Shown here piece by piece: positions 3,131 to 28,118 of a stretch of 36,345 bases of DNA. Below the pieces are notes generated by a model. It was not told where the DNA came from, did not search any database, and worked only from the letters and a program-made list of their open reading frames with translations. Position numbers and translations under genes: made by a program. This DNA comes from an uncultured Bacteroidia bacterium (GTDB lineage: Bacteria; Bacteroidota; Bacteroidia; Bacteroidales; F082), in NCBI GenBank assembly GCA_902783365.1, contig CACZQL010000098.1:1-36345 (forward strand), in the 5' to 3' direction. Numbering within the stretch: position 1 is the stretch's first letter; each line of letters begins with the position of its first letter.

Positions 3131-3625
3131 CTAACGGATGGGGGTTGAGGGTAGTTTTTGAAGCTCCTCGCCGATGAAGGTGGCCGACATCCTGACCAGC
3201 TCGACGCAAGGACGTTTCTTGTAATAGGTTTCAGAACGAGGGGAGGGGACGGGCGACTCTTTGACAGGGGCGACGCCCAGCAGCTCCCGGCAGATGATGC
3301 TGCCGTTTTCCTGGCGGAACCGCTCGGCCACTTGTTGCACCAGCGCGTAGCAGCGTGTCTTGGAGGCGATGTCGGAGGTGTTGTCACAAGGGATGGCTAG
3401 CCCGGCGACGAGCGCTGCGCCACTCACGGCGCCGCACACCTCGCGCATCCTTCCCATGCCCGCGCCCATGGGGGCGGCGATGATGGCCGCCGTCCTGGCA
3501 TCCATACCGAAGAGGTCGGCGTAAGCCATATAAACGGCTTGGGCGCAGTTATAACCACTTTTGAAGTTGTTGACGGCTTGCTCGGCGCGTTCTGTAACGT
3601 TGATGGAGGCGTAGTCTGGGGTCAT
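3131..3625 (-). CDS. C-GCAxxG-C-C family putative redox protein
   Basis: This 164-residue soluble protein belongs to the C_GCAxxG_C_C family (PF09719, TIGR01909). The defining cysteines are visible: Cys27 in GYNCAQAV, Cys64 in REVCGAVSGA, then Cys111 and Cys139 in the C-terminal half. Family members are thought to be redox-active or to bind a metal cluster, but no reaction is established. Its ATG overlaps the TGA of the upstream desulfidase gene (ATGA at 3622-3625), so translation is probably coupled. Placement in a cysteine-breakdown operon suggests a role in handling sulfide, persulfide or electrons; that is inference. Confidence 0.87.
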   Translation of the reverse strand: MTPDYASINVTERAEQAVNNFKSGYNCAQAVYMAYADLFGMDARTAAIIAAPMGAGMGRMREVCGAVSGAALVAGLAIPCDNTSDIASKTRCYALVQQVAERFRQENGSIICRELLGVAPVKESPVPSPRSETYYKKRPCVELVRMSATFIGEELQKLPSTPIR

Positions 3626-4893
3626 TCCACCATGATTTTGAGGATTTCCACATCGGTCTCCTTCATGCCGTAGCGGCCTAAGCGTCCGATATGGTCGATG
3701 GTCTCTTCCACGTCGTTGCCCACGATGCCGTCGCCGCCCAGAAGCTCATTGCCTTTCTTGGCCATCTCATAGCCGAGGATGCCCGACTCCACAGAGACGG
3801 CGATTTTGCCAGCGCAGGAAGGCTTGGCACCATCGCAAACGATGCCGGCGGCGATGCCAAGGGCGTTCTCCAAGGTGTGCTCGATGACGCTCAGGGGCTC
3901 ACCCATGAGGTAAGCGATGCCGCATCCCGAGGCACATCCGGCACTGACGGCACCACAGTAGGCTGATAATCTTCCGATACCAGTCTTCTGATGGATGGCC
4001 ACCAGGTTCGACAGGGCGATGGCACGGATGCAGCGTTCTTCGTCGATGTGGTATTCCTCGGTATAGGCGAGGATGGGGAGACTGACGGTCATGCCTTGGT
4101 TGCCGCTGCCTGAGTTGATGATGACGGGCATCTCGCATCCGCTCATGCGGGCGTCGCTGCCCGCCGCGGCCCAGGCTCTCGCCTTGATACGAATGTCGTC
4201 GCCAAAACTCAAGATGGTGCTGCCGATGTTGGCGCCCCAGTCGTTCTTCAAGCCTTCCATGGCGATGGCCTTGTTGCACTCGATTTGCGGTCCGATAATG
4301 GGCTTCAGCTCCTCAATATCAACCGTGTTGACGAAGTCGTAGATCTTCTTCATGCAGAGACACTTGCGGTCGGTAAGCTTCGCATTGGCGTCGGCTTCGT
4401 AACCTGAGTCGAATAACACTTGTTCGTTTTTCTCTATTTTTACTATATTAGTATGGTGTCCTGCTATGCGAACACTGGAGGACTGGTTGCCGTCGTAAAG
4501 GGTCACGGTGACATCGAGTTGCGCAATGACGTTGAGGGGCACGATGGTCATCAGGGTGTCTTCGAGGAACTGCGAGATGGCTTTTTTCTGTTCCGGGGTG
4601 ACTTCCGCGATGACTTCCAAAGCCTTGTCGGGGTTGCCGGCGACGATGCCTGCCGCGACCGAGGCTTTCAGTCCCTTCATGCCCTTGGTGTTGGGCACAA
4701 TGACGCTTTTCACATTTTTGATGATATTGCCGCTGGCTTTGATTTCCACTCTCTTGGGCATGGAGCCTAAGACTTCACGGGCTTTGGCGGCGGCGTAGGC
4801 CAGACAAATGGGTTCGGTGCAGCCCATGGCAGGCACCAGTTCCTCTTTCAGGATGTTCAGGTAATTCTGGTAACAACAATCGCTTTTATCCAT
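3622..4893 (-). CDS. cyuA: L-cysteine desulfidase family (CyuA/YhaM, UPF0597)
   Basis: This family breaks L-cysteine down to pyruvate, ammonia and sulfide with a [4Fe-4S] cluster instead of pyridoxal phosphate. The 423-residue protein has the N-terminal GCTEP motif with Cys25, which as I recall is the catalytic position in the archaeal enzyme. Cys313, Cys353 and Cys360 have the 40- and 7-residue spacing I remember for the cluster ligands. The motif IINSGSGNQG is also family-typical. I start it at 4893 (MDKSDCC), because the promoter -7 element at 4911-4918 lies just upstream and the longer frame reads through it. It is the first gene of a three-gene operon. The related L-serine dehydratase alpha fold means serine is a possible alternative substrate. 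Confidence 0.85.
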   Translation of the reverse strand: MDKSDCCYQNYLNILKEELVPAMGCTEPICLAYAAAKAREVLGSMPKRVEIKASGNIIKNVKSVIVPNTKGMKGLKASVAAGIVAGNPDKALEVIAEVTPEQKKAISQFLEDTLMTIVPLNVIAQLDVTVTLYDGNQSSSVRIAGHHTNIVKIEKNEQVLFDSGYEADANAKLTDRKCLCMKKIYDFVNTVDIEELKPIIGPQIECNKAIAMEGLKNDWGANIGSTILSFGDDIRIKARAWAAAGSDARMSGCEMPVIINSGSGNQGMTVSLPILAYTEEYHIDEERCIRAIALSNLVAIHQKTGIGRLSAYCGAVSAGCASGCGIAYLMGEPLSVIEHTLENALGIAAGIVCDGAKPSCAGKIAVSVESGILGYEMAKKGNELLGGDGIVGNDVEETIDHIGRLGRYGMKETDVEILKIMVE

Positions 4894-4954: not shown

Positions 4955-6658
4955 TCACTTTTCAGTTTGGGTATTTGTCTCATACAGCAACACTCCCGAC
5001 ACCATCCAGTGGCTGAAACTGCCTCCTTCGTCTTTGCCTTGAGGGATGGCCACACGGAGGGTGTGTTTTCCGGGCTTCAACCCGCTGAGGTCGAACCAGA
5101 TAGGGTTGGTTGCGGTGCCAGGGCACCAGCCGGAGCGGGAATAGTCGGAGGACGACACTCCATTCCAGAAGTTGCCCGAGACGGGGTTTTGGTCACGGAA
5201 AGTGGCGCAGTCGCATCGCCAAGGGGTATGCGTGAAACGTTTCTCCCCATCGATAGATAGGACGTTTTCCTTGGGGTTGAACTCATCGCCGTTACCCCAT
5301 CCGCCATGCCCGGTGCTGAGATAGCGGAGCCGTGGATTCACGGCGTCTTCAGGAAGCTCAAAAGTGACTTCAAGGGTGTCGGTCGCAAAGAGTCGTCCGT
5401 AGTTTTGTCCCGACATCTCCAGCACGTTGCAGGTGTTGAAGAGGGGCAGGGAATGCTGTCGGCATGGCTGCTCGTCCCATTCATAGTCGCCAGGATAGGC
5501 GAGGAGGTCGAGCGAGAGAATATGCCCGCCTTTGTCATAATTCCCGATGAAGGCCCCGATGAGCACATCACCTTGGAGAAGATTTCTTAACTCGCTGACT
5601 TCCTGCTTGTAATAGTTTTCATCGGTCCATGTCAGACCATCAATCTTCACGCGGTCGTTGAAGTGTCCGGCCCCAAACGAGGTGAAGAAACGCACCAGCT
5701 CCACGGGAGGCAGATAGTCGTTTTCTGCCTTGATGCCTTGGTATTCCTGGCCATCGCTACCCACGAACACGGGCAGGGCTTGCGTGCCTTCCATCAGTCC
5801 TTGAAGGAAACTCTTTTTGGCTTCGGTGGGGATGACAAAAACTGACGCTGAGCGGTCGTAGGCATCACCATTGGAGCGTTGGTGGATCTCGGCGAAGAGT
5901 TGGTAGTGCTCGGGCAGTTGGGGGAGGTGTACCCGTTTCAAAATTACCGTACCGTGACTGAAATGAAGGGTCGTGTCGAAAGGTATCTCTCCAGTAATGG
6001 CTTCGTAATCAGAAAAATGGATTTTTTCGTCATGGAAAATAGGGATGCGCATCACCAGTTTGTCTTTACGCAACTGGCTCATCTCGCGTGGACTTAACCG
6101 TTTCCCTTTATTGCTGGGAATCAAAGGAGTAGGTTTTTTTCTGTCTTTGGCAATCTTTTTCAGGTCGGTGATGTAAATCCCGTTTCTCATGCAGCGCACC
6201 ATCACACCTTTGAGGTTCCCGAGGGAAGGCATGGGAGTGGCGTCGAATCCAGGTCGTTCGGTCATCCACACTTCGATGGTGTTGGAGTTGATGCTGGTTT
6301 TGTATTTCTTGCAGGGATATCCCAGCAGTTTTTCTTCACCTTCTTCGCTGAAAACCACGTCGTTGTTATTTAATTCGGAGGCACTGTAATAGCTTTCGTC
6401 GGGGTGTTGCAGCAGGGTGAACACCGAGTCTTGAAGGTAGTTGACGTAGGTGATGCTTTCGGCGTAGCCGGGGATAGGGTGAACCACTTTATTGTCAGGT
6501 TGCTCAATCTTCAGACAGCCTTTTTGTTCCGTGATGCAGGTATGGGTGGTGTCGCCATCCACCACGTCTTTGGCGTAGCTAATATATGTGAGGGTATGTT
6601 GCCCGAAGGTCATTCCGGTCCATAACAAAGCAAAGATGAAGAGAACGTTTCTTTTCAT
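4955..6658 (-). CDS. Secreted PNGase F-like peptide-N-glycosidase
   Basis: PNGase F-type enzymes release intact N-glycans from glycoproteins by cleaving the glycosylamine bond to Asn. This 567-residue protein has a cleavable signal peptide (about residues 1-19, ending TFGQ). An N-terminal domain of roughly 180 residues ends with a GYPCKKY segment recalling GLPGLI/DUF4412-type envelope proteins. The two PNGase F jelly-roll domains (PF09112, PF09113) occupy about 200-567. The region STGHGGWGNGDEF and the later NFWNGVSSSDYSRSGWCPGT closely match Flavobacterium PNGase F. Glu459 in NGDEF corresponds to its active-site Glu206. The start at 6658 gives the signal peptide and follows a promoter at 6679-6686. 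With the GH20 enzyme near 33 kb it suggests use of host glycoproteins. Confidence 0.88.
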   Translation of the reverse strand: MKRNVLFIFALLWTGMTFGQHTLTYISYAKDVVDGDTTHTCITEQKGCLKIEQPDNKVVHPIPGYAESITYVNYLQDSVFTLLQHPDESYYSASELNNNDVVFSEEGEEKLLGYPCKKYKTSINSNTIEVWMTERPGFDATPMPSLGNLKGVMVRCMRNGIYITDLKKIAKDRKKPTPLIPSNKGKRLSPREMSQLRKDKLVMRIPIFHDEKIHFSDYEAITGEIPFDTTLHFSHGTVILKRVHLPQLPEHYQLFAEIHQRSNGDAYDRSASVFVIPTEAKKSFLQGLMEGTQALPVFVGSDGQEYQGIKAENDYLPPVELVRFFTSFGAGHFNDRVKIDGLTWTDENYYKQEVSELRNLLQGDVLIGAFIGNYDKGGHILSLDLLAYPGDYEWDEQPCRQHSLPLFNTCNVLEMSGQNYGRLFATDTLEVTFELPEDAVNPRLRYLSTGHGGWGNGDEFNPKENVLSIDGEKRFTHTPWRCDCATFRDQNPVSGNFWNGVSSSDYSRSGWCPGTATNPIWFDLSGLKPGKHTLRVAIPQGKDEGGSFSHWMVSGVLLYETNTQTEK

Positions 6659-6678
6659 GTTTGATAAGGATTGAAACG

Positions 6679-6686
6679 CAAAATTA
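6679..6686 (-). promoter_or_regulatory. -7 element of the PNGase F-like gene
   Basis: TAATTTTG on the minus strand, about 20 bases upstream of the start codon at 6658. No clear -33 TTG is visible. Confidence 0.5.
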
Positions 6687-6738
6687 GTTTTTTTGTGTGT
6701 TTCGGGGATTAGAATGACATTTTTTTTTGATTTTTGCC

Positions 6739-6746
6739 TATTTTTG
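6739..6746 (+). promoter_or_regulatory. -7 element of the ATPase/DUF4276 cassette
   Basis: TATTTTTG on the plus strand, 21 bases before the ATG at 6768, embedded in a very AT-rich divergent intergenic region. Confidence 0.55.
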
Positions 6747-6767
6747 CAAAAAATACTGTTTTGATAT

Positions 6768-8162
6768 ATGATTACCAAGATTGAAATCGATGGTTTCAAG
6801 TCCTTTTCCAAGTTCAAAATGGAGTTTTCTCCACTGACAGTCATTGTAGGAACCAATGCTTCAGGGAAGAGCAACTTGTTCGATGCGTTACATCTGCTCT
6901 CTAACCTCTCTCAAATGGATTTACGTTCCGCTTTTTCGAGCAAACAGTTGCGAGGTGAAGTGTCCGAGTTGTTTACTAAATTCGATGATGAGCATTCAGC
7001 TTCTGAGATGAGTTTCGTGGTTGAAATGTTGGTACCACGAGCCATCTGTGATAAATGGGGCGGAAAGGATGAGGTAAAGACTCCAAGGCTACGTTACGAG
7101 CTGAAAATTGTGAAATCACATAATGAATTAGGCTATGATGATTTATCTGTCGTTCGTGAAGAGTTGTCACGAATTGCTACAGATAAGGATGAGTGGTCAA
7201 AAAGATACTTAAAGAAACATGTCGGTATCTGGAAAAGCACAAAGAGTGGAGGTAGCGGAAAGCCCTATATTTATACAGAAGAGGAGAAAGGAAGACCTAC
7301 CATACGAATCCGACAGGATGGTAAACAGGGGGGGCGGTCGGTGTTGGCCAATGCGGTGAATCAAACTGTGTTGGGAAGCATTAATTCAGTGGATTTTCCT
7401 CATGTATATGCAGCTCAACAGGAAATGGCGAGTTGGAATTTCATGCAACTTAATCCTGAATTGTTACGGGAGCCAACACGTTATGATGCAAATTATTCTG
7501 GTGACACAATAGGTCATGCTGGAGAAAATCTTTCAGCGGCTTTGTATAGACTGAAGAACCAAGATCCATTCAATATGCAACAGATAGTACTTAAACTCTC
7601 TTCGTTTCTTCCAGAATATACTAAGCTGAATGTAAGGGATGACAAGGCCAACAAGCAGTTTGTCTTCGACCTGCAAAATAGTGACGGAAAGACATTTTCA
7701 TCGAGAGTGCTTTCAGAAGGCACTTTGCGTTTGCTGGTTCTATGTGTACTGCTTTTTGATGACCAATATCAGGGGTTGCTTTGTTTTGAAGAACCGGAAA
7801 ATGGAATTCATCCAGCACGGATGAAGGCAATGGTTTCATTGTTACGCTTACTATCATCGGATTTTGATGACGAAGAGACTTCGTTGCGTCAAGTCATTGT
7901 CAATTCACACTCTCCTGTTCTTTTGAAATACCTCTATCGGGATTATTCCGATTCAGACAACGCAGTTAGTATCTGGTTCTCCAAACTCATCTCTAGTTCG
8001 GTTCTTGTTGAAGATCAGAAGAAAAGTTTACGTATCAGCAGGATTACTCCGCTCACCAAATCATTCCAATATTCTTTTACAGAAGCGGAAAATAAAATGA
8101 CGATAGCAGATGCCGTTGATTATTTGAAAACAGAAGACAATTATCTTGAGAAGACGTTATGA
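6768..8162 (+). CDS. AAA_21/SMC-type ATPase of putative defence pair
   Basis: This 464-residue ATPase has the ABC/SMC head architecture seen in OLD nucleases, RecF-like proteins and several anti-phage ATPases. Visible motifs are the Walker A GTNASGKS (residues 28-35), an ABC-signature-like LSEGTLR near residue 314, Walker B with catalytic Glu in LLCFEEPENGIHP near 337-349, and the H-loop NSHSP near 380. The region between Walker A and the signature (about 50-300) is variable, as is usual for sensor or coiled-coil insertions. Its TGA overlaps the ATG of the next gene by 4 bases (8159-8162). Base composition is clearly more AT-rich than most neighbours, which suggests acquisition. It probably forms a complex with the DUF4276 partner; a defence role is inferred from this architecture. 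Confidence 0.85.
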   Translation: MITKIEIDGFKSFSKFKMEFSPLTVIVGTNASGKSNLFDALHLLSNLSQMDLRSAFSSKQLRGEVSELFTKFDDEHSASEMSFVVEMLVPRAICDKWGGKDEVKTPRLRYELKIVKSHNELGYDDLSVVREELSRIATDKDEWSKRYLKKHVGIWKSTKSGGSGKPYIYTEEEKGRPTIRIRQDGKQGGRSVLANAVNQTVLGSINSVDFPHVYAAQQEMASWNFMQLNPELLREPTRYDANYSGDTIGHAGENLSAALYRLKNQDPFNMQQIVLKLSSFLPEYTKLNVRDDKANKQFVFDLQNSDGKTFSSRVLSEGTLRLLVLCVLLFDDQYQGLLCFEEPENGIHPARMKAMVSLLRLLSSDFDDEETSLRQVIVNSHSPVLLKYLYRDYSDSDNAVSIWFSKLISSSVLVEDQKKSLRISRITPLTKSFQYSFTEAENKMTIADAVDYLKTEDNYLEKTL

Positions 8163-8827
8163 GACAGTTGTTTATAGGGTTAGTTGCAGAAGGTACAACC
8201 GATGTTAGATTCCTGAAAAGTGTCATATACAAGTCGGCATTGGAGCTGTCTTGGCAATGTGATTCCATGGTGGAAGTTTTTGATATTAGGGAGATATATC
8301 CTCAAGGGGATGGTTTTGCAGAAAAGATGCTCAATGCTTCGAAGGTCGCACAAGATAAATATAGTATTTCGATGCTATGTATCCATGCGGATTCTGATAG
8401 TAAAACCATTACCGATGTTATGGAGAACAAGTTCTTCCCTTTTTATGAAGCTTTAAAGGCTAAAGATGATAAAGATTTTTGTAAGTGTATTGTTCCGACA
8501 ATTCCGATACAAATGATTGAATCATGGATGTTGGCTGACAAGTTGTTGTTAAAACAACTCATCGATGCAGAAGGAATAAGTGATTCTGATTTAGGTATTG
8601 ATAGACCCCCCGAATCATACGCTGATCCGAAAGAAGCCATTAATAATGCTATACGCATTGCCTTTGAAGGGAAACCAAAGCGGAAAAGAGACCAAATCAA
8701 AATATCCGACCTGTATGAAGTTTTAGGCAATCAGCTGGATTTGGATAGTTTACGCTCAATACCTTCTTTTCGTAGTTTCGAAGACGGTATGTTAAATGCT
8801 TTTAAAAGGTTGAATTTGATAAGATAA
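8159..8827 (+). CDS. DUF4276 TOPRIM-like protein, partner of the ATPase
   Basis: This 222-residue protein fits DUF4276. The N-terminus has the TOPRIM-like acidic pattern: Glu11 in VAEGTTDVRFL and an Asp-x-Asp in HADSD (Asp78, Asp80). These are the positions that bind metal in OLD-family nucleases, so it may be a nuclease or an RNA-cleaving effector. A central segment IQMIESWMLAD is typical of DUF4276. Translation is coupled to the ATPase by an ATGA overlap. The ATPase plus TOPRIM organisation resembles PARIS (AriA/AriB) and, as separate chains, Gabija GajA. I cannot match it to a named system. A 3-copy heptamer repeat follows the stop codon. Confidence 0.8.
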   Translation: MRQLFIGLVAEGTTDVRFLKSVIYKSALELSWQCDSMVEVFDIREIYPQGDGFAEKMLNASKVAQDKYSISMLCIHADSDSKTITDVMENKFFPFYEALKAKDDKDFCKCIVPTIPIQMIESWMLADKLLLKQLIDAEGISDSDLGIDRPPESYADPKEAINNAIRIAFEGKPKRKRDQIKISDLYEVLGNQLDLDSLRSIPSFRSFEDGMLNAFKRLNLIR

Positions 8828-8833
8828 ACTTTC

Positions 8834-8854
8834 CCTTCTGTCTTCTATCTTCTG
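8834..8854. repeat. Heptamer tandem repeat, 3 copies
   Basis: Three copies of a 7-bp pyrimidine-rich unit (CTTCTGT, CTTCTAT, CTTCTGT) fill the gap between the convergent ends of the DUF4276 gene and the TPR gene. Confidence 0.75.
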
Positions 8855-8857
8855 TCT

Positions 8858-10945
8858 TTAATTGCTCCTCGAAATCTCCACCATGCTCACTTCCACATCG
8901 TCGTTCTCGGAAATCAGCTCGATCCAGGTGTTGTCTTCGCTGAACCACTTGTACTGCGAGCCGATGCGGAAGAGATAGGTCTTGGTTTCCTCGCTGTCGG
9001 AGATGGCCAGCACAAAGCCTCCGTTCTTGCCGTTCTCGCTGCCGAAGGAGACAATCATCGGGAAGCTCTTGCCCGGGGTGAGGTTGCGGGCTTTCAGGAT
9101 GATGTAGTTGGATCGGCGGGAGGCCACGTCAACGGGGTTGAAGGTGAAGCGTCGGGGCGTGTTGGCCGTCATGGTGAAGGCCTCGGTGTTGAGCTCATAC
9201 AGCTTGTTCTCCTCGATGATGCGACTGATGCGCTCGATCATCTCGGAGGGGTAGGGCTCGCCCAAGCCAAGCTCCTCGGCTTTGATGTAGTTCTCCACGG
9301 CCTTGTCGAGTGCCTTGGCGTTGAATTGTTTGTCGCCTTCTTTAATAAAGCTGTTGTATTGGGCGCGCAAGGCTGACACCCGGTCGGATTCCATGCGTTG
9401 GGCAGCTTGCAGTTGGGCGGTGGCCTCGGCGTCGTCGGGTTTGGCCACCAGGGCCATCTGATACTGGGCGATGGCGTTCTTAAAGTCTTCTTCGTTCATG
9501 TAACGGGCTGCGGCGGCCATGGCCTCGTCATAGCGCTGTTGGGCTTCCGCGGCGATCTGAGCGAAGATGCCGTCGATTTCGTTGATCTTGGCGGTGGCGG
9601 TGGCGTTGCCTTCGTCGAGGGTGAACACCTCTTGGTATTTCGCTTTGGCTTCCACGTATTTCTCTTCGGCGAAGAGACCGTCGGCGACGCCGAGCATCTG
9701 CTGGATTCGCTCCTGGCGCTCGGCTTCGGCGGCTGCCTCGGCAGCCAGTCGTGCGGCCTCAGCCTCAGCGGCCAAACGAGCGGCCTCGGCTTCGGCAGCG
9801 AGCCTTGCGGCTTCTTCGGCGGCGGCTTGCTCCGCGGCGAGACGGGCGGCCTCGGCCTCTTCCTCCAAACGTCTGATGGTGGCGGATACTTCGTTCACCT
9901 TTTGGGTGGCGGCAAGGTCGCCAGGCTTATAGGTCAGGGCCTCCTGATAGGTGTTGAGGGCCATCTGCCACTGCTCCTGGGTCTCCAGGCCAGCGCCTCT
10001 TTCCATGGCGGCGAGGTAGTTCTGCTCGGCGATGTATTCCGGACTCTCGAACAACTCGTTGATACGGCGGATCATGTCGGTGGCGTAGGCGTCGCCTGGC
10101 ACCAAGGCGAACACACCTTGGTAAGCGGTGCGGGCCTCGGTGTATTGCTTGTTCTCGTACAGCTGGTCGGCCTCGGCGATGAGGGTGTTGTAGCGGTCGT
10201 TGAGGTCTTTGGCGGATTGGTATTCTTGAATCTTGTTGGGCACTTGGGTGTCATTGGGGAAGAGCTCCAGGGCCTGGTTGAGTTTGGCAATGGCGTCGTT
10301 GAAGTTCTTGCGAAGTGCCAGCTGGTCGGCGTCGGCGACCAGCTTGTTGAACTGGGCGGTCTTGTCGTTATAGATCTGCTGCAACCGGCGCGCCTCGGCG
10401 ATGCGGTCTTTGGGCAGCTTGTCGTTGGGGAAAATCTTGGCCGCAGCCTCGAACTGGAGGATGGCGGCGTCGAAGTTCTCGCCTTCGAGCAGGGCGTTGC
10501 CTTGCTCGATGGCCCGGTTGTAGGCCTCCTGGTTGTCCTGGCGCTCTTTCAGGATGGCTCTGATGGACTCGGCTTGGGCGCCCACGTACTTGTCGTCAGG
10601 GAAGATGGCGAGGGCTTTGTCGTATTCGGCGAGGGCCTCCTCGTACTTGTTTTCGGCATGGAGGGCGTCACCGGCGTCGAGATGGGCGTAAAACACTTCC
10701 TGCCGCTCACTGTCGGCCTGGATCTTCACCAAGGTCTCGTTGAGTTTCTGCTGGGCCTCGGCGTCTTTCGGCTTCTGCTTGAGGGCCATCTCATAATACG
10801 TCTTGGCACTGATATAATCTTTCGCCGTGAACTTGGCGTTTCCGCTCCTCATCAGCGACTCGTAGGATTCAGGCGCTTGAGCCATGATGCCGTTGGAGCA
10901 CAGCAGGGCAGTTCCTAATAAAATACCGTATAATATCTTTTTCAT
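8858..10945 (-). CDS. Secreted TPR and coiled-coil protein, Ala/Glu repeat
   Basis: A 695-residue exported protein with a signal peptide (residues 1-22, ending IMAQ). From about 28 to 340 it carries successive tetratricopeptide-like helical repeats with recurring AL..YP.D patterns. These are followed by a charged helix near 355-410 made of repeated AEAARLA units, more TPR-like repeats to about 585, and a C-terminal beta-rich domain of about 110 residues. No enzyme motif is visible. The design suggests a periplasmic or outer-membrane scaffold. It follows lolD by 39 bases and probably shares its transcript, since no promoter is seen in the gap, only heptamer repeats. I do not recognise a specific family. 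Confidence 0.8.
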   Translation of the reverse strand: MKKILYGILLGTALLCSNGIMAQAPESYESLMRSGNAKFTAKDYISAKTYYEMALKQKPKDAEAQQKLNETLVKIQADSERQEVFYAHLDAGDALHAENKYEEALAEYDKALAIFPDDKYVGAQAESIRAILKERQDNQEAYNRAIEQGNALLEGENFDAAILQFEAAAKIFPNDKLPKDRIAEARRLQQIYNDKTAQFNKLVADADQLALRKNFNDAIAKLNQALELFPNDTQVPNKIQEYQSAKDLNDRYNTLIAEADQLYENKQYTEARTAYQGVFALVPGDAYATDMIRRINELFESPEYIAEQNYLAAMERGAGLETQEQWQMALNTYQEALTYKPGDLAATQKVNEVSATIRRLEEEAEAARLAAEQAAAEEAARLAAEAEAARLAAEAEAARLAAEAAAEAERQERIQQMLGVADGLFAEEKYVEAKAKYQEVFTLDEGNATATAKINEIDGIFAQIAAEAQQRYDEAMAAAARYMNEEDFKNAIAQYQMALVAKPDDAEATAQLQAAQRMESDRVSALRAQYNSFIKEGDKQFNAKALDKAVENYIKAEELGLGEPYPSEMIERISRIIEENKLYELNTEAFTMTANTPRRFTFNPVDVASRRSNYIILKARNLTPGKSFPMIVSFGSENGKNGGFVLAISDSEETKTYLFRIGSQYKWFSEDNTWIELISENDDVEVSMVEISRSN

Positions 10946-10952
10946 ATTCTTA

Positions 10953-10987
10953 CTTCTTTCTTCTTACTTCTGTCTTCTGTCTTCTTA
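10953..10987. repeat. Heptamer tandem repeat, 5 copies
   Basis: Five consecutive 7-bp units of the form CTTCTNN lie between lolD and the TPR gene. The last unit supplies the TAA stop codon of lolD (10985-10987). Confidence 0.75.
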
Positions 10988-28035: not shown

Positions 28036-28118
28036 CTTCTATCTTCTGTCTTCTATCTCCTGTCTCCTGTCTTCTGTCTCCTGTCTTCTGTCTTCTGACT
28101 TCTGACTTCTGTCTTCTG
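28036..28118. repeat. Heptamer tandem repeat, about 12 copies, partly translated
   Basis: About twelve imperfect copies of a 7-bp unit (CTTCTGT, CTTCTAT, CTCCTGT, CTTCTGA) run from the end of the EamA gene into the 3' end of the MscS gene. Because three units equal 21 bases, the translated part encodes a periodic Arg/Gln/Lys/Asp tail (SQKTEDRRQKTGDRR). Confidence 0.85.

What the first reader, a model, noticed from the sequence alone, without database searches (positions are those of the whole stretch)
6768..8827. AT-rich SMC/ABC ATPase + DUF4276 TOPRIM pair, possible unnamed defence system
Two translationally coupled genes encode an ATPase with complete Walker A, signature, Walker B and H-loop motifs and a small TOPRIM-like protein with Glu11 and an Asp78-x-Asp80 pair. 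The split ATPase/TOPRIM layout parallels PARIS and, as a fusion, Gabija and OLD. The cassette is more AT-rich than its neighbours, has its own promoter, sits alone between unrelated housekeeping and glycan genes, and is followed by a tandem repeat. These are features of an acquired module.
Basis: partly seen in the sequence, partly recalled or inferred. Interest (0 to 1): 0.8.

Follow-up and report, generated by a model that had tools for sequence, protein, structure and literature searches.

The report
Acquired ATPase–nuclease phage-defence gene pair
Two overlapping genes, dropped into a chromosomal spot where related bacteria keep other anti-virus systems, look like a two-part alarm-and-nuclease phage defence that a database already lists as a candidate.

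Summary
Window 6768-8162 encodes a 464-aa OLD-type ABC ATPase (A) with complete motifs, overlapping by 4 bp a 222-aa DUF4276 protein (B, 8159-8827). The pair is AT-rich (GC 0.41/0.37; neighbours 0.52-0.59) and rare: B in 2 of 99 congeneric and 3 of 173 family genomes, A in the same 3. It is absent as a unit in relative G013, where the flanking PNGase F and TPR genes lie 36 bp apart. "Unnamed" is wrong: both match PADLOC's candidate system HEC-01 (E 2.9e-131, 1.9e-49). New here: the junction beside the TPR gene is variable, and in 5 of 8 other occupied copies holds defence or defence-candidate genes (type II CRISPR-Cas, type I and II restriction, Avs4, CBASS-like, Fic). In three relatives the pair lies among restriction-modification genes, in one beside an integrase. 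B is Toprim-like: Glu11, Asp78 and Glu121 are nearly invariant, and its DUF4276 kin match RloB and OLD Toprim profiles above 23 controls; direct matches are weak and Foldseek found none. Best reading: an abortive-infection module, the ATPase sensing and restraining, the Toprim protein cutting nucleic acid. Defence role likely; trigger and substrate inferred. A new member of a known kind.

The parts
6768..8162 (+). gene A: 464-aa OLD-type ABC ATPase (PADLOC HEC-01A; Pfam AAA_21/AAA_15)
8159..8827 (+). gene B: 222-aa DUF4276, Toprim-like putative nuclease (PADLOC HEC-01B)
6849..6872 (+). Walker A GTNASGKS (A residues 28-35)
7710..7724 (+). ABC signature LSEGT (A residues 315-319)
7776..7799 (+). 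Walker B LLCFEEPE (A residues 337-344)
7902..7913 (+). H-loop NSHS (A residues 379-382)
8189..8191 (+). B Glu11, first residue of the E-G-T-T-D stretch (Toprim motif 1)
8390..8398 (+). B Asp78-x-Asp80 (Toprim motif 2)
8519..8521 (+).
6739..6746 (+). TATTTTTG, promoter-like box of Bacteroidota type
   Evidence: match to a consensus only
6644..8857 (.). stretch absent in relative G013, where PNGase F and TPR matches are 36 bp apart (approximate bounds)
4955..6643 (-). left neighbour: PNGase F-like glycosidase
8858..10945 (-). right neighbour: TPR-repeat protein; its stop codon is the fixed edge of the variable site
3622..4893 (-). serine-dehydratase-alpha-like gene; under 100 bp from the TPR gene in 27 of 33 congeneric stretches that hold both
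8835..8858 (+). CTTCTGT heptamer array; dispersed in the genome, not part of the module

Best explanation
A horizontally acquired two-gene anti-phage module of the ATPase-plus-Toprim kind (PADLOC candidate HEC-01). The ATPase (A) most likely forms a multimer that binds the small Toprim-like protein (B) and keeps it quiet; a phage product or phage-caused change, plausibly one that disables host restriction, is sensed by A, which frees or activates B; B, using Glu11, Asp78/Asp80 and Glu121 to hold metal, then cuts nucleic acid (RNA or DNA) and stops the infected cell. Shown here: gene structure, motifs, coupling of the two genes, rarity and absence from the same site in a near relative, residence in a defence-rich site, conserved acidic residues. 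Inferred: complex formation, sensing, nuclease activity, substrate and outcome.
For: HEC-01A E 2.9e-131 and HEC-01B E 1.9e-49. A precedes B in all 9 loci compared, window included (A of L007 is cut by the contig start), and in 3 more, L060, L062, L064. In the family the A search (E<=1e-30) and the B search each hit 3 of 173 genomes, the same three. Of 30 DUF4276 loci examined, window included, 26 have a Walker-A ATPase just upstream (23, three more). Empty site in G013 and composition. The same junction in 5 of 8 other occupied congeners holds defence or defence-candidate genes. The pair lies among type IIG or methylase genes in L003, L004 and L058 and next to a primase/HTH/integrase set in L008. 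Acidic residues: E11 31 of 33, D78 37 of 37, E121 40 of 40. The B model (pLDDT 90.1) puts Glu11 after strand 6-10 and Asp78/Asp80 after strand 72-76. DUF4276 profile against RloB 91%, against OLD Toprim 68%; 23 controls at most 9.4%. Passages: PARIS ATPase plus Toprim (PMC9122126; PMC12409363); RloB/AbiLii are OLD-Toprim related and an AAA partner neutralises such toxins (PMC10440598).
Against: Foldseek found no PDB match of B below E 0.04 (1065 matches at E<=10, 50 shown; query TM of those shown at most 0.33). HEC-01B directly against OLD Toprim or RloB is weak (E 0.012 and 0.066; best control E 0.037). Asp80 is Tyr or Phe in 9 of 37 rows, so DxD is not universal. The model of A is poor (pLDDT 61.2). 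No complex was modelled. G267 has a B-like frame with no A found by tblastn at E 1e-3. In G133 A and B lie on different contigs, so adjacency is not shown there. In L002, L006 and L064 the neighbours scanned are not restriction genes. Three of eight other occupied sites gave no defence match. No activity data.
Confidence: 0.6

Rival explanations
1. A toxin-antitoxin pair that mainly keeps itself (or a linked element) in the genome: A neutralises a toxic B; phage defence is incidental.
For: AAA-neutralised OLD-Toprim toxins are reported (PMC10440598 passages); overlapping two-gene layout; B mostly comes with an A; in L008 the pair lies at the edge of an integrase-bearing stretch.
Against: Residence in a site rich in defence genes fits defence better. 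For PARIS, the closest tested analogue, loss of either gene was harmless, which excluded a toxin-antitoxin pair (PMC9122126 passage); this was not tested for HEC-01.
Confidence: 0.17
2. A restriction-linked accessory that acts directly on incoming DNA (ATP-dependent nuclease), not an abortive effector.
For: The pair lies among type IIG or methylase genes in L003, L004 and L058; OLD and GajA Toprims cut DNA (PMC10568477 passages).
Against: In the window and in L002, L006 and L064 the neighbours scanned are not restriction genes, though not every neighbour was scanned; AriB, a well studied separate Toprim, cuts tRNA.
Confidence: 0.15
3. A chromosomal maintenance or cell-cycle ATPase pair (RecF/SMC-like), not defence.
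For: A matches SMC_N and RecF N-termini; one archaeal OLD-family ATPase is reported to work in the cell cycle (PMC12796447, start of abstract in the listing only).
Against: B is in 2 of 99 congeneric genomes and the pair is missing from the same site in a near relative: not housekeeping.
Confidence: 0.05
4. B is a Rossmann-like protein without nuclease activity (structural or regulatory partner).
For: Foldseek's best matches are unrelated proteins at low score; Asp80 not universal.
Against: Glu11, Asp78 and Glu121 nearly invariant over diverse rows; DUF4276 kin match Toprim profiles.
Confidence: 0.12

Closest known systems
HEC-01 (PADLOC-DB; 'Hma-embedded candidate' 01)
   Same: Both proteins match nearly full length (A 1-445 to model 1-449 of 464; B 1-221 to 1-221 of 222), adjacent and overlapping.
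   Different: Nothing seen that would set it apart. I found no experiment on HEC-01 in the searches.
PARIS (AriA ATPase + AriB DUF4435 Toprim)
   Same: Separate ATPase and Toprim-type protein; A matches AriA models (E 8.3e-34); a Glu is essential in both designs (AriB E26; here Glu11, by conservation only).
   Different: B has no DUF4435 (PF14491) match in Pfam at E 0.1; it matches DUF4276.
RloA-RloB / AbiLi-AbiLii
   Same: ATPase plus separate small Toprim-related protein, also seen in type I restriction operons (PMC10440598 passage); A matches AbiLi at 2.7e-22; DUF4276 profile matches RloB at 91%, and an E-x-W stretch aligns in HEC-01B and RloB.
   Different: B itself has no RloB (PF13707) match at E 0.1; its direct profile match to RloB is weak (E 0.066).
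Gabija GajA and OLD nucleases
   Same: OLD-type ABC ATPase working with a Toprim domain.
   Different: Not fused; neighbours are PNGase F and TPR genes, no helicase.
MADS MAD3 ATPase
   Same: A matches the MAD3 model (NCBIfam E 1.8e-45).
   Different: 155.8 bits against a cut-off of 420; the neighbours named by Pfam are not MADS genes.

Membership tests
HEC-01 (PADLOC) | HEC-01A ATPase match | tested here: met
   PDLC04184 E 2.9e-131
HEC-01 (PADLOC) | HEC-01B match | tested here: met
   PDLC04212 E 1.9e-49; Pfam DUF4276 32.5 bits, cut-off 30.2
HEC-01 (PADLOC) | A and B adjacent | tested here: met
   4-bp overlap; PADLOC's own rule file was not seen
HEC-01 (PADLOC) | embedded in an Hma locus (origin of the name) | not tested
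   the name tells how candidates were found (PMC12988326 passage); whether each copy must be embedded is not stated there
PARIS | AAA_15 or AAA_21 ATPase | tested here: met
   rule from PMC9122126 methods passage
PARIS | DUF4435 partner | tested here: not met
   no PF14491 hit at E 0.1; rule
OLD / Gabija | ATPase and Toprim in one chain | tested here: not met
   two genes
Gabija | adjacent UvrD/PcrA/Rep-like helicase | tested here: not met
   flanking genes are PNGase F and TPR
RloAB / AbiL | RloB (PF13707) partner | tested here: not met
   no hit at E 0.1; distant profile link only through DUF4276
Toprim superfamily (B) | Glu after the first strand and DxD after a later strand | tested here: met
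   Asp80 replaced by Tyr/Phe in 9 of 37 rows of the wider family
Toprim superfamily (B) | Toprim fold by structure comparison | tested here: inconclusive
   good model but no confident Foldseek match; pdb_via not available
Anti-phage system | protects cells from phage | not testable with these tools
   needs phage challenge

The most novel reading that the evidence does not exclude
DUF4276 proteins are a third separate-chain Toprim effector lineage, beside AriB and RloB, with an E / D(xD) / E metal site that tolerates loss of the second Asp of DxD. Their ATPase partners act as guards of restriction systems, which would explain copies set among restriction genes and in a chromosomal defence site where type I restriction genes come and go and leave scars.
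Probability: 0.3. Interest if true: 0.65.

Novelty: new member of a known kind. Interest (0 to 1): 0.42.

Why it matters
If it works as read, it gives a compact, testable example of an uncharacterised pair whose B family is common (DUF4276 in 19 of 118 sampled genomes of the window's phylum, 17 of them over the Pfam cut-off). It names residues to mutate, including a Glu outside the usual Toprim motifs. And it supplies a bait locus: the gene junction beside the TPR gene collects defence systems in this genus, so unknown genes found there are fair defence candidates.

Tried and rejected
Viral contigs: three scans (B alignment, A alignment, a distant B) found no relative. Plasmids: no match to B. 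The single 'phage' hit, MT836135, carries a DNA-alkylation-repair gene and ruvB on either side of the pair, so it reads as a bacterial piece, not as phage carriage. DUF4435 in 61 genomes: no match, so no AriB profile could be built. PDB sequence search with B: no relative, one chance hit at E 0.72. The tandem repeat as a mark of the insert was rejected. MADS membership was rejected on score. The model of A had low confidence, so I drew nothing from it. Papers on HEC: the main texts of the two PADLOC papers do not hold the string.

Rows dropped: in the 40-row alignment L148 was left out as a duplicate of L050; rows are not independent (near-duplicate pairs L004/L005 and L007/L008) and several N-terminal parts are missing or shifted. 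In one search the DUF4276 set (23 rows) also left out L143, L144, L150, L151 and L152; the OLD set held 14 of 15 loci (L169 left out) and the RloB set 13 of 15 loci (L182 and L183 left out). A first pass at upstream genes picked some wrong frames; redid it by hit frame but skipped the hit's own frame, so three loci rest. The control junctions were chosen after looking at the data.

Full report
What is there. ORF A runs 6768-8162 (464 aa) and ORF B 8159-8827 (222 aa) on the plus strand, overlapping by ATGA. Pfam gives AAA_21 (E 3.9e-33) and AAA_15 for A, and DUF4276 (32.5 bits, cut-off 30.2) for B. PADLOC gives HEC-01A for A (E 2.9e-131) and HEC-01B for B (E 1.9e-49), both nearly full length. 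So the pair already carries a candidate name. NCBIfam gave nothing for B at E 0.1; A's best is MAD3 at 155.8 bits, far under its cut-off of 420.

Acquisition. GC is 0.410 and 0.374 against 0.52-0.59 in the three neighbouring genes measured, GC3 0.40 and 0.35 against 0.63-0.79. B occurs in 2 of 99 genomes of the genus (window's own included), 3 of 173 of the family and 4 of 395 drawn from the phylum. A, at E<=1e-30, occurs in the same 3 of 173. The congener G065 has only a 41%-identical B, on a contig other than its TPR gene, while an uncultured Prevotellaceae genome has one at 70%. In G013, whose PNGase F gene is 85% identical to the window's, the PNGase F and TPR matches are 36 bp apart: the pair is absent as a unit. 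Loss in G013 is formally possible; rarity, composition and the nature of the site favour gain in the window's lineage.

The site. I fetched the stretch behind the TPR gene from 66 of the 81 other genomes with a TPR match. In 33 of the 66 the serine-dehydratase-like gene lies on that side within the stretch; in 27 of these 33 the two matches are under 100 bp apart, which I take as the empty state. Six of 33 carry more than 500 bp between them, as does the window; in two more (L056, L103) foreign genes begin at the TPR stop and the dehydratase gene is not reached. The other 31 have other neighbours or too little sequence. Contents of these eight: L073 type II CRISPR-Cas (Cas9, Cas1, Cas2); L100 a type II methylase, a HindVP-type nuclease, Avs4, a transposase-like ORF (read by eye) and 198 residues of HsdR; L056 HsdR and a SoFic-type Fic; L103 HsdR, HsdS, a CD-NTase, a 2TM effector (SLATT), TIR-TM, a SoFic-type Fic and a PDC-S01 candidate; L054 a Fic protein (candidate PDC-S72) and a 31-residue HsdR scar; L053 PNGase F only; L101 a DUF4886 protein; L099 a 150-aa ORF; the last three without a PADLOC match. 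So five of eight hold known or candidate defence genes. Of 18 other gene pairs looked at in the same stretches, 12 conserved junctions show an insert over 500 bp in 2 of 199 cases in all; the six set aside are variable or not adjacent (c1-c3 10 of 26, c1-c24 6 of 9, c1-c27 3 of 7, c27-c24 1 of 4, c5-c6 10 of 18, c6-c11 11 of 17). c1 is the dehydratase gene, so its far side varies at least as much as the TPR side: the variable region may be the whole surroundings of that gene.

The pair elsewhere. A precedes B in 9 of 9 loci compared, window included, and in L060, L062 and L064. A type IIG gene lies directly before the pair in L003 and two genes before it in L004; methylase/type IIG genes follow it in L058. 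In L005 the locus holds a weak PDC-M11A match and a gene after the pair with a weak match to the SIR2-containing Aga models. In L008 the genes after it, on the other strand, match a primase, an HTH protein and a phage-type integrase, a sign of a mobile element. In G133 a B fragment at a contig end is followed by a type III restriction gene, with the A copies on other contigs. In L002 the gene before is an AAA-ATPase/PDDEXK protein without a PADLOC match and the gene after has none either; in L006 the gene after is a formyl transferase; in L064 the flanks are DNA-alkylation repair and ruvB. Over 30 wider DUF4276 loci, window included (30 of the 31 rows), 26 have a Walker-A ATPase just upstream (23; L136, L138 and L139); L143, L144, L150 and L151, all partial matches, do not.

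What B is. The AlphaFold2 model from 8 sequences is good (pLDDT 90.1, pTM 0.88): strand 6-10 leads to Glu11, helix 17-31, strand 72-76 leads to Asp78-x-Asp80, helix 84-100, strand 111-114, and Glu121 sits in the next helix. This is the order expected of a Toprim domain (recalled). In a 40-row alignment of DUF4276 proteins, counting rows with a letter: Glu11 31 of 33, Asp78 37 of 37, Asp80 24 Asp and 4 Glu of 37 (8 Tyr, 1 Phe), Glu121 40 of 40. Profile comparison: the HEC-01B set (12 rows) against the other DUF4276 set (23 rows) 97%, E 3.8e-11; DUF4276 against RloB 91%, E 1.2e-6; against OLD Toprim 68%, E 4.7e-5; 23 control families at most 9.4%, E 0.0035. Directly, HEC-01B against OLD Toprim gives only 3.5%, E 0.012, and against RloB 0.8%, E 0.066, with the best control at E 0.037; the OLD alignment puts E-G-T-T-D and D-x-D in register. 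Foldseek against PDB gave nothing below E 0.04. I take B as Toprim-like with fair confidence, by a two-step link, not by direct proof.

What A is. ABC motifs complete and nearly invariant across relatives; by sequence its PDB kin are SMC proteins and an OLD nuclease, in the N-terminal part only. Its model is poor (pLDDT 61.2), so I say nothing on its arms.

How it most likely works. By analogy with PARIS, where an anti-restriction protein triggers the system and growth stops (passages of PMC9122126) through tRNA cleavage by the Toprim partner (passages of PMC12409363), and with AAA proteins that neutralise OLD-Toprim/RloB-type toxins (passages of PMC10440598), A should hold B and release it on infection. 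Copies among restriction genes make a guard role plausible. No step of this was tested.

What is known. PADLOC lists HEC-01; 'Hma-embedded candidates' are tied to a guilt-by-embedding screen, and several, HEC-06 among them, had antiviral activity (passages of PMC12988326). Of 15 papers with the string HEC-01, one is about phages by its title; it lists HEC-01 among systems annotated in Desulfovibrio piger (passage of PMC12724379); the other 14 were set aside by title. 'DUF4276' was in no paper of the library. These searches cover open-licence PubMed Central only, so a test of HEC-01 in print elsewhere cannot be ruled out. A 2026 survey treats ATPase-Toprim pairs as known backup effectors near BREX (passages of PMC12839542).

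Verdict. A real, acquired, probable defence pair; a new member of a known candidate kind. The fresh parts are the defence-collecting site in this genus, Glu121 of the wider family, and the profile link of DUF4276 to RloB and OLD Toprims.

Noticed in passing
window 8835-8858, 10967-10986, 28043-28118: CTTCTGT heptamer arrays are scattered through this genome in both orientations (81 near matches to one 20-base stretch, 52 for the backward control); their role is unknown.
   Followed up: partly
L054, L056, L073, L100, L103: The junction beside the TPR gene is a defence-gene turnover site in this genus, with HsdR scars in L054 and L100.
   Followed up: yes
L056:165-2573, L004:2337-3833, L004:6704-9262: Three large proteins (803, 499, 853 aa) inside defence loci without a PADLOC match; the first two also without a Pfam match, the third with only a weak AAA_19.
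   Followed up: partly
G000:C119:2169-2741 (L181): The window's own genome also has an RloB-family gene, with a Walker-A-bearing open frame just upstream on the same strand: a second ATPase-Toprim-type pair.
   Followed up: partly
L064 (MT836135.1): A record deposited as 'Bacteriophage sp.' reads as a bacterial chromosome piece; the pair lies there between DNA-alkylation repair and ruvB genes.
   Followed up: partly
L061 about 8162-8545 (G267): A DUF4276 frame with no A found in front of it by tblastn, perhaps a decayed copy.
   Followed up: no
L008:6692-10292: Beside the pair: primase-like, HTH and phage-type integrase genes, a likely integrative element.
   Followed up: partly
window 4955-6643: A PNGase F-like N-glycanase shares this variable junction with the pair; of 66 congeneric stretches only G013 (L053) has it there, though 83 of 99 genomes have some match, many of them weak.
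   Followed up: no
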